Positions 2,315 through 48,712 of a stretch of DNA of 64,000 bases are shown one piece after another. The translations under genes and the position numbers were made by a program. The stretch is from a virus. Under the pieces are notes generated by a model that saw only the letters and a list, made by a program, of their open reading frames with translations, had not been told where the DNA came from and did not search any database. Location of the stretch: positions 64,001 to 128,000 of IMG/VR virus record IMGVR_UViG_3300019458_000002; one strand, 5' to 3'. Every line of letters starts with the position of its first letter. The stretch's first letter is position 1.

Positions 2315-2677
2315 GGGGTTGAATTGGTATCGATTGGGAGAAAAACTAAATAACTGCAAGTAAGGTTTGCTTAAGTACCTCAAACTTAACATCAAAGTAA
2401 ACGACAACGTTGAAATGGCAATGGCTGCCTAAACAGCCAAGTTCTCTGGTCCACACCCGTACCGACCAGATGAACTACAAAGTCGGGTCTCTTTTTGAGA
2501 TTGCAGAGTTATTCACACTAAGAGTATGTAACCTGCCTTCAGGGCTCCAATTGTTCTACTGGCCACCTGACAGTTATATAGAAAAAGAACGAAACTGGCC
2601 TGGCAGCACCAGGACAAGCTTGTAGACGTTATCGTGGCCCTTCCAAGACCCGGGTTCGAATCCCGGCGACTCCACCA
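2315..2677 (+). ncRNA. ssrA: tmRNA (ssrA), phage-encoded
   Basis: This 363-nt gene has a complete tmRNA plan. The acceptor strands GGGGTTG (2315-2321) and CGACTCC (2667-2673) pair over seven positions with two G-U pairs, and CCA is encoded at 2675-2677. The T arm is CCGGG/TTCGAAT/CCCGG (2650-2666), and the D-like start GAATTGGTATCGATTGGGAG is typical. A tag reading frame ends at TAA 2430-2432 and reads approximately (V)NDNVEMAMAA; the resume codon is not certain. The stop lies in a hairpin GGCTG/CAGCC. A pseudoknot follows: TCTGGTC/GACCAGA with loop CACCCG pairing to downstream CGGGT. tmRNA with SmpB rescues stalled ribosomes and tags the nascent chain for proteolysis. No smpB gene is seen here, so host SmpB is presumed. 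Confidence 0.9.
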
Positions 2678-3074: not shown

Positions 3075-3738
3075 CAAGGAAGAAGTAAACAAGGTCGTTA
3101 CCGAGATTCCAATCGAGATTTTTAGGTTTCTAGAGGACCATCCTGGTCTAGCGATTGGTGGAGGCTTTGTACGCTCTGTGCTTTTCGACGAAAAGCCTGT
3201 TGACCTTGACCTGTTTATGGTTCGTGAACTTGTTTCTGAACCCAAGTTCAAGAGTGCCGAGGACTTTGTAAAGGCGTTTGATTCGTCTTCTACCGTAGGC
3301 ATTGAAAATGCGTACACTCAGGAGTGTGATACCTGGAACGCAGCTACTTACGGAGCAACTGGTCTTGTTCCAGTTCAGTTCGTAAAGCGTGCGGTGTTTC
3401 GTACTGTTGACGAAATTGCAGATGGAGGTTTTGACTTCACTGTTTGCTGCGCAGTAATTTACTTCAACCCACGTACCTCAACTTGGGAAGGGCGCTCTCA
3501 CAAGGACTTCTTCATCGACAACTGGAACAAGAAACTGGTCTACGTACAGAACCGGCCAGACCTCCACGGAAGCAACAATGTTGCACGTCTAGCAAAATAC
3601 TCACGCAAGGGCTTTGATATTGACCGCAAGAATACAAATCTTCTGGTCGCATCTTACCTGCAGAGAGTTTTGAAGGACAGGCCGTATCTAGCCGAAGTCC
3701 TTGAGCTAGTAGAAAAGTCCAATAAAAACTACTACTAA
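3058..3738 (+). CDS. Nucleotidyltransferase-like protein (Pol beta superfamily)
   Basis: GAGGAGG at 3045-3051 is correctly spaced for the ATG at 3058 or 3061, giving about 226 residues; longer in-frame starts at 3028 and 3052 are poorly spaced. The segment AIGGGFVRSVL...PVDLDLFM reproduces the GG...R...DxD signature of class II CCA-adding and poly(A) polymerase-type nucleotidyltransferases (GGxVRD...DxDL), with metal-binding aspartates in DLDLF. The rest is a helical domain. A tRNA- or RNA-modifying nucleotidyl transfer role is plausible given the adjacent tmRNA, but the substrate is unknown. Confidence 0.65.
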   Translation: MMRILSKEEVNKVVTEIPIEIFRFLEDHPGLAIGGGFVRSVLFDEKPVDLDLFMVRELVSEPKFKSAEDFVKAFDSSSTVGIENAYTQECDTWNAATYGATGLVPVQFVKRAVFRTVDEIADGGFDFTVCCAVIYFNPRTSTWEGRSHKDFFIDNWNKKLVYVQNRPDLHGSNNVARLAKYSRKGFDIDRKNTNLLVASYLQRVLKDRPYLAEVLELVEKSNKNYY

Positions 3739-26144: not shown

Positions 26145-26345
26145 ATGAAGTACGAAGACGCACTGATTGAAGCCAACAATTTCGCAATGGTTGCAAAGCC
26201 TGGGGCGACCTATCTAGTTGATGTGGACTATTGGTATCTTAAGCCATTCTTCGCGTTTATTCCTGAGGCACTGCGGGCACGCGGTCTGGGAATGAAGAAC
26301 ACCAATGAAGGGTGGGTTATTACGGACGAAATCCGCGTCGGTTAG
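26145..26345 (+). CDS. Small hypothetical protein
   Basis: A 66-residue soluble protein (MKYEDALIEANNFAMVAKPG...). The pattern resembles a small alpha/beta fold and no motif is known. No Shine-Dalgarno; the predicted transcription start is the ATG. The same transcript would continue into the structured region and tRNA-Tyr downstream. Confidence 0.6.
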   Translation: MKYEDALIEANNFAMVAKPGATYLVDVDYWYLKPFFAFIPEALRARGLGMKNTNEGWVITDEIRVG

Positions 26346-26514
26346 CGACCGACTAGTAGGGACGGACACCCTATTATTGAAGCAGGGTAGCGACACCTGC
26401 GAAAAACAGGGTTAGCCTGACCAGGAAGGCCGCGATAGCTGTAACGTTAACAGAAGCCACCTGAGGGGCAACCCGATGAAGGTACTAAGACGTGTTTCTG
26501 TCAGCCCAATTTTC
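26346..26514 (+). ncRNA. Structured non-coding region, unknown RNA
   Basis: 169 nt without a convincing reading frame, between a stop codon and tRNA-Tyr. Hairpins visible in order: TAGGG/CCCTA (26357-26373), GCAGG/CCTGC (26382-26400), then CAGG/CCTG or GGTTA/TGACC, a GGC/GCC stem around CTGT...ACAG, and ACCT...AGGT enclosing GGG-GCAA-CCC with a GNRA tetraloop. CAGG and CCTG segments occur several times and could pair in alternative ways. It matches no RNA family that I recognise. Possibly a processed leader, riboswitch-like element or phage small RNA. Confidence 0.5.
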
Positions 26515-26597
26515 TGGGGAGTGGTCAGAGCGGCAAATGAACTTGACTGTAAATCAAGCGCCTTCGGGCTTCGTGGGTTCGAGTCCCACCTCCCCAA
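26515..26597 (+). tRNA. tRNA-Tyr (anticodon GTA)
   Basis: Acceptor TGGGGAG/CTCCCCA, D loop with GG, anticodon arm CTTGA-CTGTAAA-TCAAG (GTA at 26549-26551), long class II variable arm with GCC-TTCG-GGC, T arm GTGGG-TTCGAGT-CCCAC, discriminator A. CCA is not encoded. All features agree with tRNA-Tyr. Confidence 0.9.
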
Positions 26598-26607
26598 CAA
26601 TTCCTGT

Positions 26608-26636
26608 TTGACTTTTCAAAATTAATTGTTTATTTT
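26608..26636 (+). promoter_or_regulatory. Sigma-70-type promoter, near-leaderless
   Basis: TTGACT (26608-26613), 17-nt spacer, TATTTT (26631-26636), eight bases to the ATG at 26645. Confidence 0.55.
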
Positions 26637-26644
26637 GGAATGCC

Positions 26645-27121
26645 ATGGAAGACAGCGAACACATTGAACAGTGGGTCTTTAAGGCCTTGCTCGCAAACGG
26701 CCTTCTCCCTATTCATCTTCCCTTCAAATGGGAATTTAGCGACAAGACTCCTAGTGGGGCTCTGGGATGGGCAACATACTCAGAAAGAAAAATCTCTCTA
26801 AATACAGAGTATTGGCGGGGTCTTTCGACGGAACGACGGCGGCAGCTGGTTATGCATGAGGCTTGCCATCTCATTTCTTTCCACCTTTATGGAGTTGAAG
26901 GAAAGGGACACCGCAGAAAATGGCGAGATTGCATGAGAAATTGTGGCCTTGTTCCTGATAGATGTGAAGCTGTTCAGTTTGCAACCAAGAAAAAGCCAAA
27001 TGAAGGGCGCTGCAATTGCCGTAGCTGGTTCTTCAGCAATATAATCCTCAAAAGGATGATGTGTGGCAGCAATAGACGTTGTCCCAAGTGCAAAGAACAA
27101 ATTAAAGTTTTGACTTCTTAA
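26645..27121 (+). CDS. SprT-like zinc metalloprotein
   Basis: A 158-residue protein. The motif QLVMHEACHLISF (HExxH, about residues 76-80) with a downstream GKGHRRKW supplies three histidines and matches the SprT/Spartan metallopeptidase layout. The C-terminal CNCRSWFF...CPKCKEQIKV is a zinc ribbon, as in SprT proteins. Family members cleave DNA-protein crosslinks, or are recruited to DNA; a role in phage DNA repair is plausible. Length is normal for bacterial SprT. It has its own promoter with an almost absent leader. Confidence 0.8.
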   Translation: MEDSEHIEQWVFKALLANGLLPIHLPFKWEFSDKTPSGALGWATYSERKISLNTEYWRGLSTERRRQLVMHEACHLISFHLYGVEGKGHRRKWRDCMRNCGLVPDRCEAVQFATKKKPNEGRCNCRSWFFSNIILKRMMCGSNRRCPKCKEQIKVLTS

Positions 27122-30517: not shown

Positions 30518-31096
30518 GTGAAAGACACTCACTTTAGGGGAATTAAGTGCGGGGGACGCCATTGGCCTTCGCACACAGACAAGGTATACAATCCTGAGCT
30601 ATTTGACAGAACCATTGACAAGTGTGTTAAAGCTCTTAAGGCAATTTGGGAAGAAGAGGGTCGATTCCAGGCAATTGCAGGTTCAGGCAATAGCGCACTC
30701 CCAATGCTTGGAGCCATTTCTTACATCACTGGAATTCCTATGATTGCCGTACGCAAAGCCGGGGACAATGCTCACGACAATAGACAGGTCAATGGTCCAA
30801 TTTATGAGGGCGGGGCAAAGAGCCTAAACTATGTGTTTATTGACGACTTCATAGCCACAGGAAAAACCTTCAATCGCACTATTGAGTACATTGCTCACGA
30901 AGCCAAAATCCCTACCAAGTGCATTGCAATGGTCAATTATGAAGAGGAGTATCACGATACCTATAAGAAAATCACACAGGTATCGAAAGCACTTGTTAAG
31001 AAGCAAACTGTGTACCCCTATGCTCTCAGCATCGATGGACAAAACTACAATGAAACCCCCACTTCTTTGCCTGTCTATTTTGCACAAAAATTCTAG
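30518..31096 (+). CDS. Phosphoribosyltransferase-like protein
   Basis: 192 residues from GTG 30518, with GGAGGG nine bases upstream. YVFIDDFIATGKTF (about residues 107-120) is the PRPP-binding loop of type I phosphoribosyltransferases, and GSGNSALPMLGAISYITGIP matches the preceding pyrophosphate-loop region. The substrate base cannot be assigned; nucleotide salvage for phage DNA synthesis is the simplest role. It directly precedes the Ro60-like unit but has a separate promoter. Confidence 0.8.
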   Translation: MKDTHFRGIKCGGRHWPSHTDKVYNPELFDRTIDKCVKALKAIWEEEGRFQAIAGSGNSALPMLGAISYITGIPMIAVRKAGDNAHDNRQVNGPIYEGGAKSLNYVFIDDFIATGKTFNRTIEYIAHEAKIPTKCIAMVNYEEEYHDTYKKITQVSKALVKKQTVYPYALSIDGQNYNETPTSLPVYFAQKF

Positions 31097-31122
31097 ACAA
31101 AATCAGAAAAACTAGCTATACT
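31094..31122 (+). promoter_or_regulatory. Promoter of the Ro60-like/stem-loop RNA unit
   Basis: TAGACA (31094-31099), 17-nt spacer, TATACT (31117-31122). The predicted start, about 31129, is at the first base of stem-loop RNA A (31131). Confidence 0.55.
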
Positions 31123-31130
31123 TATTCAAA

Positions 31131-31184
31131 GGGAAACAAACAGCAAAAATAGATTTCAATGGGTGAAAACAAAAACTGTTTCCC
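31131..31184 (+). ncRNA. Stem-loop RNA A upstream of Ro60-like gene
   Basis: Perfect 8-bp outer stem GGGAAACA (31131-31138) and TGTTTCCC (31177-31184). The internal loop begins ACAGCAAAA (31140-31148) and ends CAAAAAC. Inner hairpin TTTCA-ATGGG-TGAAA. It shares its layout with elements B and C although the paired sequences differ, which is the mark of a conserved RNA structure. Confidence 0.6.
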
Positions 31185-31193
31185 GTAATTTAA

Positions 31194-31245
31194 AGAATGC
31201 GTACAGCAAAATAATCTTTCTAAATTAAAGAAAAAACCGCATTCT
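31194..31245 (+). ncRNA. Stem-loop RNA B upstream of Ro60-like gene
   Basis: Perfect 8-bp outer stem AGAATGCG (31194-31201) and CGCATTCT (31238-31245). Loop begins ACAGCAAAA (31203-31211) and ends AAAAAAC. Inner hairpin TCTTT-CTAAATT-AAAGA. It lies nine bases after element A and ends five bases before the AAGGAG ribosome site of the gene. Confidence 0.6.
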
Positions 31246-31261
31246 GATTTAAGGAGCCACT

Positions 31262-32701
31262 ATGAAGTTCGTTGACGCACTACTTACCGATGACGCAGTA
31301 ACCGAAAACGGCATGGTCGCACATTCTACGGCAGGGAATGCCTGTGTTGACCTCTTCTTCCATATTGGGGCCGCGCGGACCTTGACCGACGACAAGGTCA
31401 TTGCACTGTTTGCTCCTGCTCTTCAAGAAGATGCTCTTACGGCTCTCAAAATTCTGTTTTATAACAGGGACATCCGTGAGGGCCAGGGTGAGCGAAAGAC
31501 CTTTCGGACCATTGCAAAGTATCTAGCCGACAACCATACAGAGCTTCTGCGCCTCAATCTGGCTCTAATTCCAGAGTTTGGACGCTGGGATGACGTTCTG
31601 GAACTCTTTGGAACAGCACTAGAAAATGATGCCCTTGAGCTTATCAAGGCTGGATTGGCCGCCGATAACATTCTCTGTGCAAAGTGGATGCCACGCAAGG
31701 GTCCAAATGCAAACACAATTCGCTCATTCCTTGGGATTGCTCCAAAGACCTACCGCAAGAAGCTTGTTAAGCTCTGCAAGGAAGGTGAAGTCGTAGAGCA
31801 GAAGATGTGTGCAAAGAAGTGGAACAAAATCGACTACAGCCACCTTCCTTCGAAGGCCGCGAATCAATATCGCAAGGCATTCAAGAGGAATGACGAAGGG
31901 CGCTACACCGAATACCTGGAAGGCCTTGAAAAGGGTGAAACCAAGGTCAATGCAGCTGCAATTTTCCCTCATGACATTGTGCGACCCTTCCTAACAGGAG
32001 GCTCAGTAGCTGATAAGCTACTTAATGCGCAATGGAAGGCACTTCCAAACTACCTGGAAGGCAATGACAAGGGCGTTATACCTGTCTGTGACGTATCAGG
32101 CTCAATGGCAGGGACTCCTATGGAGGTTTCTGTCAGTCTAGGTCTCTACATCAGCGAACGCAACAAGGGCGCCTTTGAGAACGCCTTCATTACTTTCAGC
32201 AGCAGCCCAAAGGTTCAGTACATCACCGGCAAAACTCTATATGAGCGAGTTGTGCAGCTGTCTAGAGCAGACTGGGCACAAAACACAAATCTTGAGAAGA
32301 CTTTTGCAATGCTCCTAAAGCATGCTAAGGACAACAAGGTGAAGCCTCAGGACATGCCTGGAACCATTCTGATTCTATCGGACATGCAGTTCGACCAGTG
32401 CTCCAAAGAGCCTACCAACACTGCCATGGACATGATTGAGCGTGAATACGGTGAAGCAGGATACAAGAAGCCGAATGTAGTATTCTGGAATCTGCGAGCA
32501 GTTGCCGACCAGGCACCCGTTAAGTTCACGAAGAAAGGTACTGCCCTCGTAAGCGGGTTTAGTCCATCCATCCTCAAGAGCATTCTTGCAAACAAAGGCC
32601 TGACTCCTCTTTCTATCATGGAAGAGACTATTAACAAAGAGCGTTACTCCAAGGTGGTTTCTGAGGCGCCAGTCAAGGCTCGCAAGGCCAAGCGTAAGTA
32701 A
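31262..32701 (+). CDS. Ro60-like RNA-binding protein (DUF2828/TROVE-vWA type)
   Basis: 479 residues. Residues 1-270 form a HEAT-like helical region resembling DUF2828/TROVE proteins (REGQGERKTFRTIAKYLADN, EFGRWDDVLELF, KWMPRKGPNANTIRSFLG). Residues about 275-440 are a von Willebrand A domain with MIDAS residues DVSGS, a Thr in NTNLEKT and Asp in ILSDMQFD. This is the Ro60 architecture: a ring that binds Y RNAs and damaged RNAs in RNA quality control. The C-terminus is basic (KARKAKRK). It is flanked by three related stem-loop RNAs and followed by a polynucleotide kinase-like gene and a phosphatase. RNA binding here is inferred from family and context. Confidence 0.8.
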   Translation: MKFVDALLTDDAVTENGMVAHSTAGNACVDLFFHIGAARTLTDDKVIALFAPALQEDALTALKILFYNRDIREGQGERKTFRTIAKYLADNHTELLRLNLALIPEFGRWDDVLELFGTALENDALELIKAGLAADNILCAKWMPRKGPNANTIRSFLGIAPKTYRKKLVKLCKEGEVVEQKMCAKKWNKIDYSHLPSKAANQYRKAFKRNDEGRYTEYLEGLEKGETKVNAAAIFPHDIVRPFLTGGSVADKLLNAQWKALPNYLEGNDKGVIPVCDVSGSMAGTPMEVSVSLGLYISERNKGAFENAFITFSSSPKVQYITGKTLYERVVQLSRADWAQNTNLEKTFAMLLKHAKDNKVKPQDMPGTILILSDMQFDQCSKEPTNTAMDMIEREYGEAGYKKPNVVFWNLRAVADQAPVKFTKKGTALVSGFSPSILKSILANKGLTPLSIMEETINKERYSKVVSEAPVKARKAKRK

Positions 32702-32720
32702 TTTCAAACAATATTAAAGA

Positions 32721-32794
32721 AATACGCACAGCAAAACACTATTGGACAAATAAGCCGCTCTGCGGCTTATGTGGCCTCAAAAACCACACGTATT
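32721..32794 (+). ncRNA. Stem-loop RNA C downstream of Ro60-like gene
   Basis: Outer stem AATACG (32721-32726) and CGTATT (32789-32794). ACAGCAAAA follows at 32728-32736 and CAAAAAC precedes the 3' side. Inner hairpin ATAAGCCGC-TCT-GCGGCTTAT (32750-32770), nine perfect pairs, then GTGG/CCAC. It is the same plan as A and B with a larger insert. There is no T tract, so it is not a normal terminator. Confidence 0.55.
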
Positions 32795-32800
32795 CTGTTA

Positions 32801-33216: not shown

Positions 33217-33429
33217 ATGGACGCCAAATTCACCCTAGTTAGGCACGGTGAAAACGGAGCCCGCCAGACCACGATTGAGCAGCTTGAGATGCCTGCTGAA
33301 GAGGCCTCTATTATAAATGTCGCGTTATGTAAAGCAAAGTCCAGCTATCGCCTATGGGCATACCAAACCCCTGAACAGATTCGCGAAAAATATAAGGCCA
33401 TGAACGAGAGACTGAAAGAAAAACCATGA
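33217..33429 (+). CDS. Small hypothetical protein
   Basis: A 70-residue protein, MDAKFTLVRHGENGARQTTI..., with a beta-type N-terminus and a charged helical C-terminus (EQIREKYKAMNERLKEK). The RHG near the start recalls phosphoglycerate mutases, but the rest of that fold is absent. ATGA overlap with the kinase gene indicates coupling. Confidence 0.55.
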   Translation: MDAKFTLVRHGENGARQTTIEQLEMPAEEASIINVALCKAKSSYRLWAYQTPEQIREKYKAMNERLKEKP

Positions 33430-33878
33430 AAACTGCAATCATCATGAGGGGCCTACCGGGCAATGGTAAGAGCACTATTGCTGGGATGCTTGCAACCTCA
33501 AGCAGAACTGAAAAATCAGTAATTTGCTCCGCAGACTACTACCATACTGCCCCAGACGGTAGCTATCACTGGAAACCAGAAAACATGGGCAAGGCTCATG
33601 AATTTTGCAGAGAAACATTCAAGAATGCCGTGGATGCTGGGACTCCCCTTGTCATTGTCGACAACACCAATACAAAGCCCTCTGAATTCGAATTCTACGC
33701 AAACTACGGCAAAGCCAATGGCTATTGGGTTGTGGAGGTAACAGTAGGTGATGCCTCAACAAAGTCCATCGAAAACAGCAAGAAATACAACACCCACAAT
33801 GTTCCAGAGGAAACCATTGAGGGTATGGCCAGGCGCTTTCAGTTTGGCCATGTATCGAGGGAGCATGACAAGAAATGA
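33426..33878 (+). CDS. P-loop kinase, polynucleotide-kinase-like
   Basis: 150 residues. Walker A GLPGNGKST (about 9-17), then SADYYHTAPDGSYHWKPENM and VIVDNTNTKPSEFE, which match the AAA_33/N4BP2-like kinase group related to the 5'-polynucleotide kinase domain of T4 Pnkp. The late arginine-containing RRFQFGH may be the lid. A 5'-OH RNA or DNA kinase role is likely but not proven. It is ATGA-coupled on both sides and shares the operon with a calcineurin-type phosphatase and the Ro60-like locus just upstream. Confidence 0.75.
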   Translation: MKTAIIMRGLPGNGKSTIAGMLATSSRTEKSVICSADYYHTAPDGSYHWKPENMGKAHEFCRETFKNAVDAGTPLVIVDNTNTKPSEFEFYANYGKANGYWVVEVTVGDASTKSIENSKKYNTHNVPEETIEGMARRFQFGHVSREHDKK

Positions 33879-34024
33879 CTATCTATCTTGTATTTGAATC
33901 CGATTATGAGGGCTCATTCTTCCATGGCGCATTTTCTACACAAGAAAAGGCCCAACAATACATCGAAAGCACAGATGAAATAACCAGAAAAGACCTCTAC
34001 ATAGAGGAATATGAACTAGAATGA
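33875..34024 (+). CDS. Small hypothetical protein between kinase and phosphatase
   Basis: A 49-residue frame from ATG 33875 to TGA 34022-34024, ATGA-overlapping both neighbours. MTIYLVFESDYEGSFFHGAF..., then an acidic tail ending EEYELE. The double overlap makes it a convincing gene despite its size. Function unknown. Confidence 0.6.
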   Translation: MTIYLVFESDYEGSFFHGAFSTQEKAQQYIESTDEITRKDLYIEEYELE

Positions 34025-34764
34025 AAACCATTGCCATAGGTGACGTGCATGGATGTCTAGGAGAACTTCAAGACCTCCTAACCAAGTGCAAGTACGAGCC
34101 AACTACAGACAAACTTTATCTGCTGGGAGACCTTGTGGACCGTGGTCCAGACTCGGCTGGTGTAATCGCCTTTGCTAGGCGCCTGTCCAAGCTTTACGGG
34201 GCAGAGTGTGTGAAGGGTAACCATGATGACAAGCATGTTCGTTTCCGTAGACACTACAATACCGAGAAGGCCACGGGCAAAAAGAACCCGATGAAGTTCA
34301 ATGACCGTAACATGGCTGAGCACCTGAAGCTCACGGACGAAGACGTAGCTTGGATGGAAGCTTTGCCGAACGTTATCATGCCTCCCAGCCTCCCAGGCTA
34401 TGCGTGTGTGCATGCTGGCTTCAATCCATTCCGTGGAGGAGCTAAGAACTGGGGCAAGGAGTGCCTATTTATCCGGTACATTGACGTAAGCAGTAATAAT
34501 ACCGTAGGTCTTGACCGAGACCTCAAGCAACCAGAAAACTCCATCTTCTGGGCGGACCTGTGGACTGGCCCTGAGAAGGTTCTGTATGGGCACTGTGTGC
34601 ATTCATACAAAGAACCACTGATTATCAATGGAACTTATGGCCTAGATACAGGTTGTTGTTTTGGCGGCAGAATGACTGCAGCTGTCTTCCATGACCCTGC
34701 CGCCGAACCTGAAATTGTACAAGTTCAGGCCTTTGATACGTACACCAAACCATTCAATATATGA
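34021..34764 (+). CDS. Calcineurin-like phosphoesterase (PPP-type)
   Basis: A 247-residue metallophosphatase with the motifs GDVHG (7-11), GDLVDRGPDS (about 36-45), KGNHDD, VHAGF and GHCVHS. This is the layout of lambda phosphatase and ApaH/PrpA-type enzymes and of the phosphatase domain of bacterial Pnkp. With the adjacent P-loop kinase it could form a split Pnkp-like end-healing pair for RNA or DNA (inference). Other possible substrates are phosphoproteins or dinucleoside polyphosphates. Confidence 0.8.
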   Translation: MKTIAIGDVHGCLGELQDLLTKCKYEPTTDKLYLLGDLVDRGPDSAGVIAFARRLSKLYGAECVKGNHDDKHVRFRRHYNTEKATGKKNPMKFNDRNMAEHLKLTDEDVAWMEALPNVIMPPSLPGYACVHAGFNPFRGGAKNWGKECLFIRYIDVSSNNTVGLDRDLKQPENSIFWADLWTGPEKVLYGHCVHSYKEPLIINGTYGLDTGCCFGGRMTAAVFHDPAAEPEIVQVQAFDTYTKPFNI

Positions 34765-46695: not shown

Positions 46696-46935
46696 ATGTC
46701 TGGGCGTGTCAAAAAACTTATGAAAATAATCGGAAAAGAGTCCAGTAAAACCAACTCCGAGCTTTCAAAGATGCTTGGCGTCAGTGTGGCTACAGTTGAC
46801 AGGTATCTTCGCAAACTTAAAAACGAAGGTGTCATTGAGTGCTCCACAAAACGCTATAGACAGTACATAGGAGCTTCTAGCTTCTGGAGAGTCTATAGGA
46901 CGATAAGGAGTAGCGTTGGAATATCAGAAAGTTAA
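46696..46935 (+). CDS. Winged helix-turn-helix regulator
   Basis: 79 residues. TNSELSKMLGVSVATVDRYLRKLKNEGVIE is a typical DeoR/Lrp-type winged HTH, taking up residues 20-50, with no extra domain. The gene lies just after an AT-rich repeat region and upstream of the chaperonin gene, which it overlaps; it probably controls one of the divergent promoters. Ligand unknown. Confidence 0.75.
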   Translation: MSGRVKKLMKIIGKESSKTNSELSKMLGVSVATVDRYLRKLKNEGVIECSTKRYRQYIGASSFWRVYRTIRSSVGISES

Positions 46936-48712
46936 GTCTGTAGCAAAGAACGTACTGGCAAAGGGTGACAAGCTAGATGGCTTAATCCTGAACACCATGC
47001 AAACGATTAGCTCCGTTGTAGGAGCTACCCTTGGACCTGGGGGACAGCCGGTTTTGATTGAGCGTTTCGAACATGATGCGCCAGTTACCATCACAAAAGA
47101 CGGGGTGACTGTTTTTAGGGCACTAGGTTTTCCTGACCCTGTTCAGCATTGCATCATGGAGGCCGCAAGAGATGCAGCTATTCACACTGCATCAGAAGCT
47201 GGCGATGGCACAACTACTGCAACAGTTCTTTCAGAAGCCATTGTGCGTCATACGCATGCATATTGCAAGAAGAATCCAAGAGTGAGTCCTCAGAAGGTTG
47301 TAAGACACCTAGAGCGAGTCTTCAAGGAAGTAATAGAACCTAAGATTCGAGAATGTTCAATTCTTGCTGATTTTTCCTCTATCGAGGGAAGGCGTATGCT
47401 ACACTCTGTCGCAAAAATTTCGGCAAATGGAGACATAGAGCTAGCAGATGCTGTGCTGAGGTGCTTTGATATTTGTGGCGACGAAGGTAACGTAACTATC
47501 ACAGACGTAATTGGACCTTCACGATACGAAGTCGAGATGATTAAGGGGTACCCAATTGCTATGGGGTATGAGGAAAGCTGTTCAAAGTTCTATCCTAAGT
47601 TTATCAATGACGTTGGCTCTCAAAAGTGCATGCTGGAGAACCCCATATTCATTCCTTACCATGGTCGAATAAATGAAACGCAAAAAATAATTCGAATCAT
47701 GGAGCGTATTGCGAAGATGTGGGACGAAGACGAGGCTGCTCCCAAGAACGTTGTCATTGCAGCCACAGGCTTTTCTGATAGCGTATTGGCTGACCTTGCT
47801 CTTAACTTTCCTTTCGAACACACAATCAACGTGTTTCCTTTGTTAGTACCACAGTCTCCAATGCCCAATGGCCAGCTACACTTTCTAGAAGACCTTTGCG
47901 CCATCACAAACAGTAACTTATTTGACCCAATCAGCAAACGTCTGGAAGAGGTTGATGACCTAGAAGAGTTTGGGAATATTTCTTTTAACACAGAAAAAGG
48001 AAAATGGGAAAGCTGCGGAGTCTCACTCTTTGAGTGTGGCCGCTATCGATGTTCCATCATAGGCCACGCTAACGAAGATGCTCTCTTATCGAGAGTCGAT
48101 GACCTAAAGAGAATGGCTCTTACTCCTGAGTCGGAGTTAGATGGCATGATTCTGAAGGAAAGAATCGCTAAGGTATCGGGTGGAATTGCAAAGCTGGTTG
48201 TTATGGGTTCTTCAAATGGGGAGCTAAAGGAAAAACGAGACAGAGCAGACGACGCCGTATGTGCTGTACGCGGGGCTATAAAGCATGGATGTTTGTTTGG
48301 AGGGGGTTGGATGCTAATCAAGATTATCCAGGCTCTACCGCAAGATGACGTGACTTTAGAGGTGTTAGAGCCTGCACTCATGGAACCTTTCAAGAGGCTA
48401 TTGAGTAATTCTGGAATTCATGCCGATGAAGCAGCTGGTATTTTGAGCAGTGTAATTGACGGTATTGACACTGGCAACCCAGTAGTGTATAATTGCTTGG
48501 AAGATAAGCTTGTTAATCCAATGGAAGAAGGGATTCTAGACAGTACGCCAGCCGTATTGGAAGCGATTCGTAATTCCATTTCTATTGCGTCCTTACTGGG
48601 GACACTAGGGGGGACAGTCGTCTTTGCAAGAGACGAGGCCCTGGAGAGAAGCGAATCAAGAGAAACTCAACAGTTTCTAAGAGACTCAAACGAAGCAAAC
48701 TTGCGAGCTTAA
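46916..48712 (+). CDS. GroEL-like chaperonin, phage-encoded
   Basis: 598 residues from a TTG start at 46916-46918, five bases after AAGGAG. VVGATLGPGGQPVLIE, TITKDGVTVFRAL and EAGDGTTTATVLSEA (about 92-106) are the ATP-site motifs of group I chaperonins, and DRADDAVCAVRGAI with CLFGGGWML matches the ATPase-Asp region of the second equatorial half. The apical domain is divergent, and the C-terminal GGM tail is absent. Like phage-encoded GroEL homologues in some giant phages, it may fold the capsid or other virion proteins. A co-chaperonin candidate is at 43075-43383. Confidence 0.9.
   Translation: MEYQKVKSVAKNVLAKGDKLDGLILNTMQTISSVVGATLGPGGQPVLIERFEHDAPVTITKDGVTVFRALGFPDPVQHCIMEAARDAAIHTASEAGDGTTTATVLSEAIVRHTHAYCKKNPRVSPQKVVRHLERVFKEVIEPKIRECSILADFSSIEGRRMLHSVAKISANGDIELADAVLRCFDICGDEGNVTITDVIGPSRYEVEMIKGYPIAMGYEESCSKFYPKFINDVGSQKCMLENPIFIPYHGRINETQKIIRIMERIAKMWDEDEAAPKNVVIAATGFSDSVLADLALNFPFEHTINVFPLLVPQSPMPNGQLHFLEDLCAITNSNLFDPISKRLEEVDDLEEFGNISFNTEKGKWESCGVSLFECGRYRCSIIGHANEDALLSRVDDLKRMALTPESELDGMILKERIAKVSGGIAKLVVMGSSNGELKEKRDRADDAVCAVRGAIKHGCLFGGGWMLIKIIQALPQDDVTLEVLEPALMEPFKRLLSNSGIHADEAAGILSSVIDGIDTGNPVVYNCLEDKLVNPMEEGILDSTPAVLEAIRNSISIASLLGTLGGTVVFARDEALERSESRETQQFLRDSNEANLRA

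What the first reader, a model, noticed from the sequence alone, without database searches (positions are those of the whole stretch)
31094..32794. Phage Ro60-like gene flanked by three related stem-loop RNAs
Seen: three segments, two before (31131-31184, 31194-31245) and one after (32721-32794) the DUF2828/vWA gene, share one plan. An outer stem with different but complementary sequence in each is followed one or two bases later by ACAGCAAAA; then comes an inner hairpin, and (A)AAAAC shortly before the closing strand. Conserved loops with changing, still-paired stems are evidence for selected RNA structure. Known: bacterial Ro60 orthologues (Rsr) often lie next to Y RNAs that they bind. Inference: these are phage Y-like RNAs or cis elements bound by the protein, forming a compact RNA-quality-control or host-takeover RNP. 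The predicted start (about 31129) coincides with RNA A. I know no RNA family with this consensus.
Basis: partly seen in the sequence, partly recalled or inferred. Interest (0 to 1): 0.88.

Follow-up and report, generated by a model that had tools for sequence, protein, structure and literature searches.

The report
Phage Ro-like protein's Y-like RNAs
A phage gene for a Ro60-like RNA-binding protein is flanked by three small structured RNAs, and the same kind of RNA turns up next to or near this gene in phages and bacteria of many groups; it looks like an undescribed class of Y-type partner RNA and strikingly resembles an orphan RNA of social amoebae.

Summary
The three stem-loops are real. They sit at 31128-31188, 31191-31249 and 32716-32800 around the DUF2828/DUF7788 gene (31262-32701). 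A covariance model built from 45 relatives, window excluded, finds exactly these three in the window (E 8e-8, 5e-6, 0.07). The same element, AAG-stem-N1-3-(U)ACAGCAA-loop-stem-C(U)NGU, lies on the gene's strand beside DUF2828 in 63 of 80 viral loci and most bacterial loci. All 22 DUF2828 phage records searched have it, beside the gene or elsewhere (in tRNA clusters in those checked); 0 of 6 DUF2828-lacking phages do. The stem covaries. At least 12 copies carry a tRNA T-arm inside the loop, two Enterococcus-phage copies match Rfam YrlA (E 2e-8, 7e-6), and in Erysipelotrichaceae the RNAs precede DUF2828 and RtcB, as in Y RNA operons. The protein model matches Ro60/TROVE folds (E 8e-9 to 3e-6). 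Best reading: a Y-RNA class specific to DUF2828-type Ro proteins, with ACAGCAA plus end-stem as the likely protein handle. Unexpectedly, it shares its anatomy with Dictyostelium Class I RNA (RF01414), said to be unique to amoebae; that Rfam family recurs, below cutoff, at copies from five phages. Binding and function are untested.

The parts
31094..31122 (+). promoter-like site TAGACA-17-TATACT; would start transcription at about 31128, the first base of RNA A
   Evidence: 10 of 12 matches; such sites are common by chance, so weak
31128..31188 (+). RNA copy A: AAA-GGGAAACA-A-ACAGCAAAA-loop-AAAAAC-TGTTTCCC-GTAA
   Evidence: model R1 without window, 34.9 bits, E 4.8e-6
31191..31249 (+). RNA copy B: TAA-AGAATGCG-T-ACAGCAAAA-loop-AAAAAC-CGCATTCT-GATT, directly before the ribosome-binding site of the gene
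   Evidence: model R1, 42.1 bits, E 7.7e-8; Rfam RF01414 29.9 bits, E 0.0043 in 1.85 kb
32716..32800 (+). RNA copy C, 15 bases after the stop codon: AAAGAAATACG-C-ACAGCAAAA-inner hairpin 32750-32770-AAAAAC-CACA-CGTATT-CTGTTA
   Evidence: model R1, 18.3 bits, E 0.068; fold z -2.8
31262..32701 (+). DUF2828 + DUF7788 (vWA) Ro60-like RNA-binding protein, 479 aa, MIDAS residues D277, S279, S281, T342, D374 invariant among relatives
   Evidence: Pfam 7e-54 and 8e-42, PHROG 850 RNA-binding protein 2e-144, Foldseek to TROVE/Ro60 E 8e-9 to 3e-6, invariant columns
33426..33878 (+). polynucleotide-kinase-like P-loop protein downstream (context)
   Evidence: AAA_33 8e-11, PHROG 505 polynucleotide kinase 2.5e-15
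34021..34764 (+). calcineurin-type phosphatase resembling the phosphatase domain of bacterial Pnkp, also ApaH/PrpE (context)
   Evidence: TIGR04075 2e-26 over Pnkp positions 185-420, below family cut-off

Best explanation
The three segments encode small noncoding RNAs (about 55-85 nt) that are the dedicated Y-type partner RNAs of the adjacent Ro60-like DUF2828/DUF7788 protein. Shown: a conserved element with a covarying end-stem, an invariant ACAGCAA next to its 5' strand and a conserved AAG...C(U)NGU frame, found with this gene in phages and bacteria of many groups; in a subset the variable loop is replaced by a tRNA-like domain. Inferred: the protein's TROVE-like domain grips the end-stem plus ACAGCAA, which stabilises the RNA; the variable loop or tRNA-like insert is the working end that blocks or recruits other partners (tRNAs, nucleases or repair enzymes), as bacterial Y RNAs do with Rsr. 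During infection the particle would guard or sort structured RNAs, probably phage tRNAs and host tRNA/rRNA fragments, next to kinase/phosphatase (this window) or RtcB (bacteria) RNA-repair enzymes.
For: Window copies found by a model that never saw them. 69 model hits in 63 of 80 viral DUF2828 loci, all on the gene's strand; 61 hits in 41 bacterial/phage loci, all on the gene's strand (the L124 hits are on its minus strand, as is its gene). 22 of 22 DUF2828 phage records have at least one copy against 0 of 6 large phages without DUF7788, 1.58 Mb (family search positive on 8 of 8 controls). Stem covariation: 97.5% paired, 7 of 7 pairs with double changes; in 27 copies outside the training set, including the window's, 96.3% paired against 60.4% when arms are re-dealt. 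Without any stem criterion, CAGCAA sites near the gene have a strong adjacent stem in 55% of cases against 10% inside the ORF and 2% on the other strand. T-arm with canonical TTCRANY loop in 12 copies; YrlA RF02553 matches E 1.8e-8 and 7.4e-6 in two Enterococcus phage EFDG1 copies. RtcB immediately after DUF2828 in Erysipelotrichaceae, as in the Salmonella rsr-yrlBA-rtcBA operon (PMC7790460). Protein model (pLDDT 85, pTM 0.85) matches TROVE domain and Ro60 structures.
Against: No binding, expression or phenotype data for these RNAs here. The published Listeria phage CKA15 RNA-seq (PMC12282133) shows abundant noncoding RNAs upstream of this gene, but the only coordinates in the text (26,236-26,727) are those of another RNA, so overlap with our copies (25,553-25,289) is unproven. 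The Ro-binding bulge known from classical Y RNAs is not present; ACAGCAA is different. Stem statistics are partly circular because candidate copies were chosen by stem. The six control phages are few and hand-picked. Copy B lies in the 5' UTR, so a cis role is possible.
Confidence: 0.77

Rival explanations
1. The copies are cis-acting protein-binding sites in the DUF2828 mRNA (autoregulatory operators): the protein binds its own 5' and 3' UTR.
For: In the window copy B abuts the ribosome-binding site and copy C follows the stop codon; weak truncated ACAGCAA hairpins lie just before the start codon in KVP40, phiN3 and one Lachnospiraceae locus.
Against: In most viral loci the copy lies only after the gene. 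In KVP40, SNUABM_49 and Ochrobactrum phage OC the good copies lie far from the gene in tRNA clusters. Several copies carry tRNA-like domains. Defined 5' and 3' ends fit mature RNAs. Both roles could coexist.
Confidence: 0.12
2. Homologues, by descent or transfer, of dictyostelid Class I RNA whose main partner is some other protein (an Rnp1A-like RRM protein); the DUF2828 link would then be secondary.
For: Same anatomy and Rfam recurrence; Class I RNAs were reported to bind the RRM protein Rnp1A (PMC7919456).
Against: The gene next to the copies is DUF2828 in phages of many unrelated hosts, and no RRM gene was noticed beside it; Rnp1A is known as a partner only in Dictyostelium.
Confidence: 0.05
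3. Processing or terminator stem-loops of tRNA-type operons, without a dedicated protein partner.
For: Copies often lie among tRNA genes; phage tRNA operons are processed.
Against: No run of T after the stems (one search finds no terminator here); invariant ACAGCAA and covarying end-stem; no hits in six large phages, some of which (T4 for one, from general knowledge) also carry tRNA genes.
Confidence: 0.04

Closest known systems
Bacterial Y RNA, YrlA type (Rfam RF02553)
   Same: Encoded beside a Ro60-type gene, end-stem at the protein-facing side, tRNA-like domain (T-arm, closed acceptor, D-arm) in a subset, RtcB nearby in some bacteria.
   Different: The window copies and most others lack the tRNA-like domain and do not match RF02553; the stem is followed by ACAGCAA, absent from the YrlA consensus shown; partner is DUF2828/DUF7788, not the TROVE Pfam family.
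Dictyostelium Class I RNA (Rfam RF01414)
   Same: About 60 nt, starts AAG, 6-bp covarying end-stem, CCUUACAGCAA motif beside the 5' strand, variable loop, A-rich stretch before the 3' strand, ends CUGU (PMC7919456); RF01414 recurs at copies from five phages.
   Different: Scores 22-30 bits, below the curated 41.5; said to be unique to dictyostelids; DUSE promoter in amoebae; known binder is an RRM protein; no Dictyostelium sequence could be searched here.
Ro60 / Rsr (TROVE) proteins
   Same: Same overall fold by Foldseek (9kop, 2i91, 1yvr, 9nep, 2nvo) with vWA and intact MIDAS residues.
   Different: Sequence identity 11-18%; no sequence match to any PDB Ro60; separate Pfam families PF11443/PF25043.
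Putative Y RNAs of Listeria phage CKA15 (PMC12282133)
   Same: Authors proposed that abundant noncoding RNAs upstream of this phage's DUF2828 gene may be Y RNAs.
   Different: They give no motif, structure or family; their most abundant region appears to correspond to ROOL RNA rather than to this element.

Membership tests
Y RNA (bacterial Ro60/Rsr partner) | gene beside or co-occurring with a Ro60-type protein gene | tested here: met
   against 90-91; Ro60 fold
Y RNA (bacterial Ro60/Rsr partner) | 5' and 3' ends paired into a stem that carries the protein site | tested here: met
   covarying 7-bp end-stem, (protein site itself inferred)
Y RNA (bacterial Ro60/Rsr partner) | tRNA-like domain (YrlA hallmark) | tested here: inconclusive
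   present in at least 12 relatives and two YrlA matches; absent from the window's copies
Y RNA (bacterial Ro60/Rsr partner) | classical Ro-binding bulged helix sequence | tested here: not met
   ACAGCAA takes its place; YrlA lower stem does not align well; the classical motif itself is from general knowledge
Y RNA (bacterial Ro60/Rsr partner) | physical binding to the Ro protein | not testable with these tools
   needs pull-down or gel shift
Dictyostelium Class I RNA (RF01414) | Rfam gathering score 41.5 bits | tested here: not met
   22.7-29.9 bits
Dictyostelium Class I RNA (RF01414) | motif UUACAGCAA beside the 5' strand of a covarying end-stem, AAG start and CUGU end | tested here: met
   alignment A1; description; ends vary (CUGU, CCGU, CUGA, CUUG)
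Dictyostelium Class I RNA (RF01414) | dictyostelid origin with DUSE promoter | tested here: not met
   phage and bacterial DNA; no DUSE looked for
Ro60/TROVE protein (for the gene) | HEAT-like ring plus vWA domain with MIDAS | tested here: met
   MIDAS residues
Ro60/TROVE protein (for the gene) | Pfam TROVE (PF05731) match | tested here: not met
   only PF11443 and PF25043, plus weak general VWA models in relatives

The most novel reading that the evidence does not exclude
DUF2828-linked RNAs of phages and bacteria and the orphan Class I RNAs of social amoebae are one ancient RNA family: Class I RNAs would be the Y RNAs of a eukaryotic DUF2828-type Ro protein, acquired from or shared with phages, bacteria or giant viruses, and not an amoeba-only invention tied to multicellularity.
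Probability: 0.45. Interest if true: 0.93.

Novelty: new variant of a known kind. Interest (0 to 1): 0.82.

Why it matters
A DUF2828-type protein (PHROG 850, 'RNA-binding protein') was found in 682 phage records of E. coli, Salmonella, Listeria, Staphylococcus, Mycobacterium, Campylobacter, Vibrio and others, with no RNA ligand that I could find described. This gives it a specific, searchable candidate partner RNA with a defined motif, which makes function directly testable in laboratory phages (KVP40, Felix O1-type, LeBron). It also suggests a partner protein for the abundant Dictyostelium Class I RNAs, whose function is still open, and questions the claim that they are unique to social amoebae. 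It adds a second Ro/Y-RNA system, parallel to Rsr/YrlA, with RNA-repair neighbours.

Tried and rejected
Riboswitch or cis-regulator reading: Rfam at gathering level gave only tRNA and tmRNA in the window and no cis-regulatory family in relatives. Chance match: rejected by the held-out model, strand bias and controls. Canonical YrlA membership for the window copies: no RF02553 hit. Chlorobi-RRM and snoRNA matches are on the other strand or within background. Single-sequence folding of the protein failed (pLDDT 37) and was repeated with an alignment. Sequence search against PDB found no Ro60. Several candidate stems inside DUF2828 ORFs (TCTCTC-CAGCAATTATGA...) were discarded as coding. Chen 2014 and Sim 2020, the main bacterial Y RNA papers, are not held, so I could not check whether the mycobacteriophage Y RNAs they mention include these elements; this is the main risk to the novelty claim.

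Full report
OBSERVATION. The window is bases 64001-128000 of a 171,713-base virus record. The gene at 31262-32701 encodes a 479-residue protein with DUF2828 and DUF7788. The three segments are present as described, each stem followed one base later by ACAGCAAAA. Single-strand folding gives only modest support, so I turned to relatives.

RELATIVES. A scan of IMG/VR with the protein gave 80 loci. A simple scan for ACAGCAA beside a stem found many non-identical elements on the gene's strand and none on the other. Reading the flanks of DUF2828 genes showed the same element mostly just after the gene in metagenomic phages, just before it or after it in named phages of Listeria, Staphylococcus, Bacillus, Campylobacter, Mycobacterium, Enterococcus and Synechococcus, and beside DUF2828 in bacterial contigs. 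Often two to four copies stand in tandem, each with its own stem sequence.

COVARIANCE MODEL. Forty-five diverse copies, none from the window, align cleanly. The 7-bp end-stem is paired in 97.5% of cells, all seven pairs show changes on both sides, and sliding the partner by one to three columns drops pairing to 30-40%. These copies were chosen by stem, so I added two less circular tests. First, starting only from CAGCAA near the gene, with no stem criterion, 55% of 132 sites have a strong adjacent stem against 10% of sites inside the gene and 2% on the opposite strand. Second, 27 copies outside the training set, from the window, KVP40, S13, Ochrobactrum phage OC, Ah1, ME3 and others, are 96.3% paired against 60.4% when the arms are dealt out anew; these were found by the model, which itself rewards pairing.

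The model finds exactly the three window copies (E 7.7e-8, 4.8e-6, 0.068), 69 hits in 63 of the 80 viral loci and 61 hits in 41 further loci, all in the orientation of the gene. Many of the 17 viral loci without a hit carry longer relatives (about 130-220 nt) with similar 5' and 3' ends (partly by eye).

CO-OCCURRENCE. All 22 DUF2828 phage records searched whole have at least one copy, while none of six large phages without DUF7788 has one (T4, phiKZ, SPO1, P-SSM2, G, AR9). If all 28 records were exchangeable the chance of this split would be about 3e-6 (1 in 376,740, computed by hand), but the controls were hand-picked. Where the gene has no adjacent copy, copies lie elsewhere; in the phages whose annotation I checked they are in tRNA gene clusters (KVP40, SNUABM_49, OC; tRNAs also flank the S13 copies).

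WHAT IT IS. Four signs point to Y RNAs. (1) The protein model (pLDDT 85.4, pTM 0.85) is closest among solved structures to a TROVE domain and to Ro60 and Rsr, E 8e-9 to 3e-6; the MIDAS residues of its vWA domain are invariant. (2) At least 12 copies carry a tRNA T-arm with canonical TTCRANY loop within the element, and two Enterococcus phage EFDG1 copies match Rfam YrlA with E 1.8e-8 and 7.4e-6 over the tRNA-like domain. (3) In an Erysipelotrichaceae contig the RNAs precede DUF2828 and RtcB follows (sequence reading suggests the same in two more), the order known from rsr-yrlBA-rtcBA (PMC7790460). (4) In the window the gene is followed by a polynucleotide-kinase-like protein and a phosphatase resembling that of bacterial Pnkp. 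The window copies lack the tRNA-like domain and belong to the short form.

HOW IT MAY WORK (inference). The constant parts (end-stem, ACAGCAA and the AAG/CUGU frame) are what a single protein family would read, and the variable loop or tRNA-like insert is what would differ in function. By analogy with Deinococcus Rsr and its Y RNA, the RNA would occupy the outer face of the ring, control access of other RNAs and tether partners. For a phage with its own tRNAs and RNA-repair enzymes the likely task is sorting or protecting tRNAs and removing damaged RNA. Overproduction of the LeBron Ro-like protein is toxic to mycobacteria (PMC13148394), which shows activity but not mechanism.

THE AMOEBA LINK. 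The best Rfam match of copy B is Dictyostelium Class I RNA (29.9 bits). In 20 short slices (5.5 kb) this family appears at the copies of five different phages, while the other families that appear in more than one slice are tRNA-type. Scores are below the curated cut-off of 41.5 and most single E-values are near 1; the recurrence is what counts, and a shared AT-rich composition helps it. The published description of Class I RNA (about 60 nt, AAG start, covarying 6-bp end-stem, CCUUACAGCAA beside it, variable loop, CUGU end; PMC7919456) reads almost like a description of the phage RNAs. That paper found none outside dictyostelids in the genomes it searched, which included one bacterium and, in the passage read, no phage. 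DUF2828 proteins also occur in giant viruses of protists. I could not search any amoeba genome, so descent, transfer and convergence remain open.

PRIOR KNOWLEDGE. Four held papers mention DUF2828, all on plants. The CKA15 paper proposes Y RNAs upstream of this gene in a Listeria phage, and I found no motif in the parts read; its phage has three copies of our element at 25,553-25,289. Chen et al. 2014 reported Y RNAs in mycobacteriophages (cited) and was not available, so part of this family may already have been seen there.

VERDICT. I rate it a new variant of a known kind.

Noticed in passing
window 2315-2677: The phage carries a tmRNA gene (tag DNVEMAMAA); tmRNA genes also lie within a few kb of DUF2828 in L030, L036 and L062.
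   Followed up: no
L111 420-971 (Listeria phage P100): A ROOL RNA match (RF03087, 86 bits, E 8e-16, under the curated cut-off of 99) upstream of DUF2828; by position it appears to correspond to the most abundant transcript of phage CKA15 (26,236-26,727), left unnamed in PMC12282133.
   Followed up: partly
L113 about 3485-3605 (mycobacteriophage Gardann) and L120 540 (Sinorhizobium phage phiN3): Copies whose loop holds a T-arm and D-arm in circularly permuted order; the Gardann copy has ACAGUAA in place of ACAGCAA.
   Followed up: partly
L002, L006, L007, L021, L077, L079: Long DUF2828-linked RNAs (about 130-220 nt) with the same kind of ends around a large conserved insert; could be a separate structured RNA worth its own model.
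   Followed up: no
window 33426-33878 and 34021-34764: Separate kinase and phosphatase genes resembling the first two domains of bacterial Pnkp RNA repair enzyme, just after DUF2828.
   Followed up: partly
window 30518-31096: Phosphoribosyltransferase-like protein upstream with weak similarity to PRTase-CE conflict-system proteins.
   Followed up: no
window 46916-48709: Phage-encoded Cpn60/GroEL-like chaperonin.
   Followed up: no
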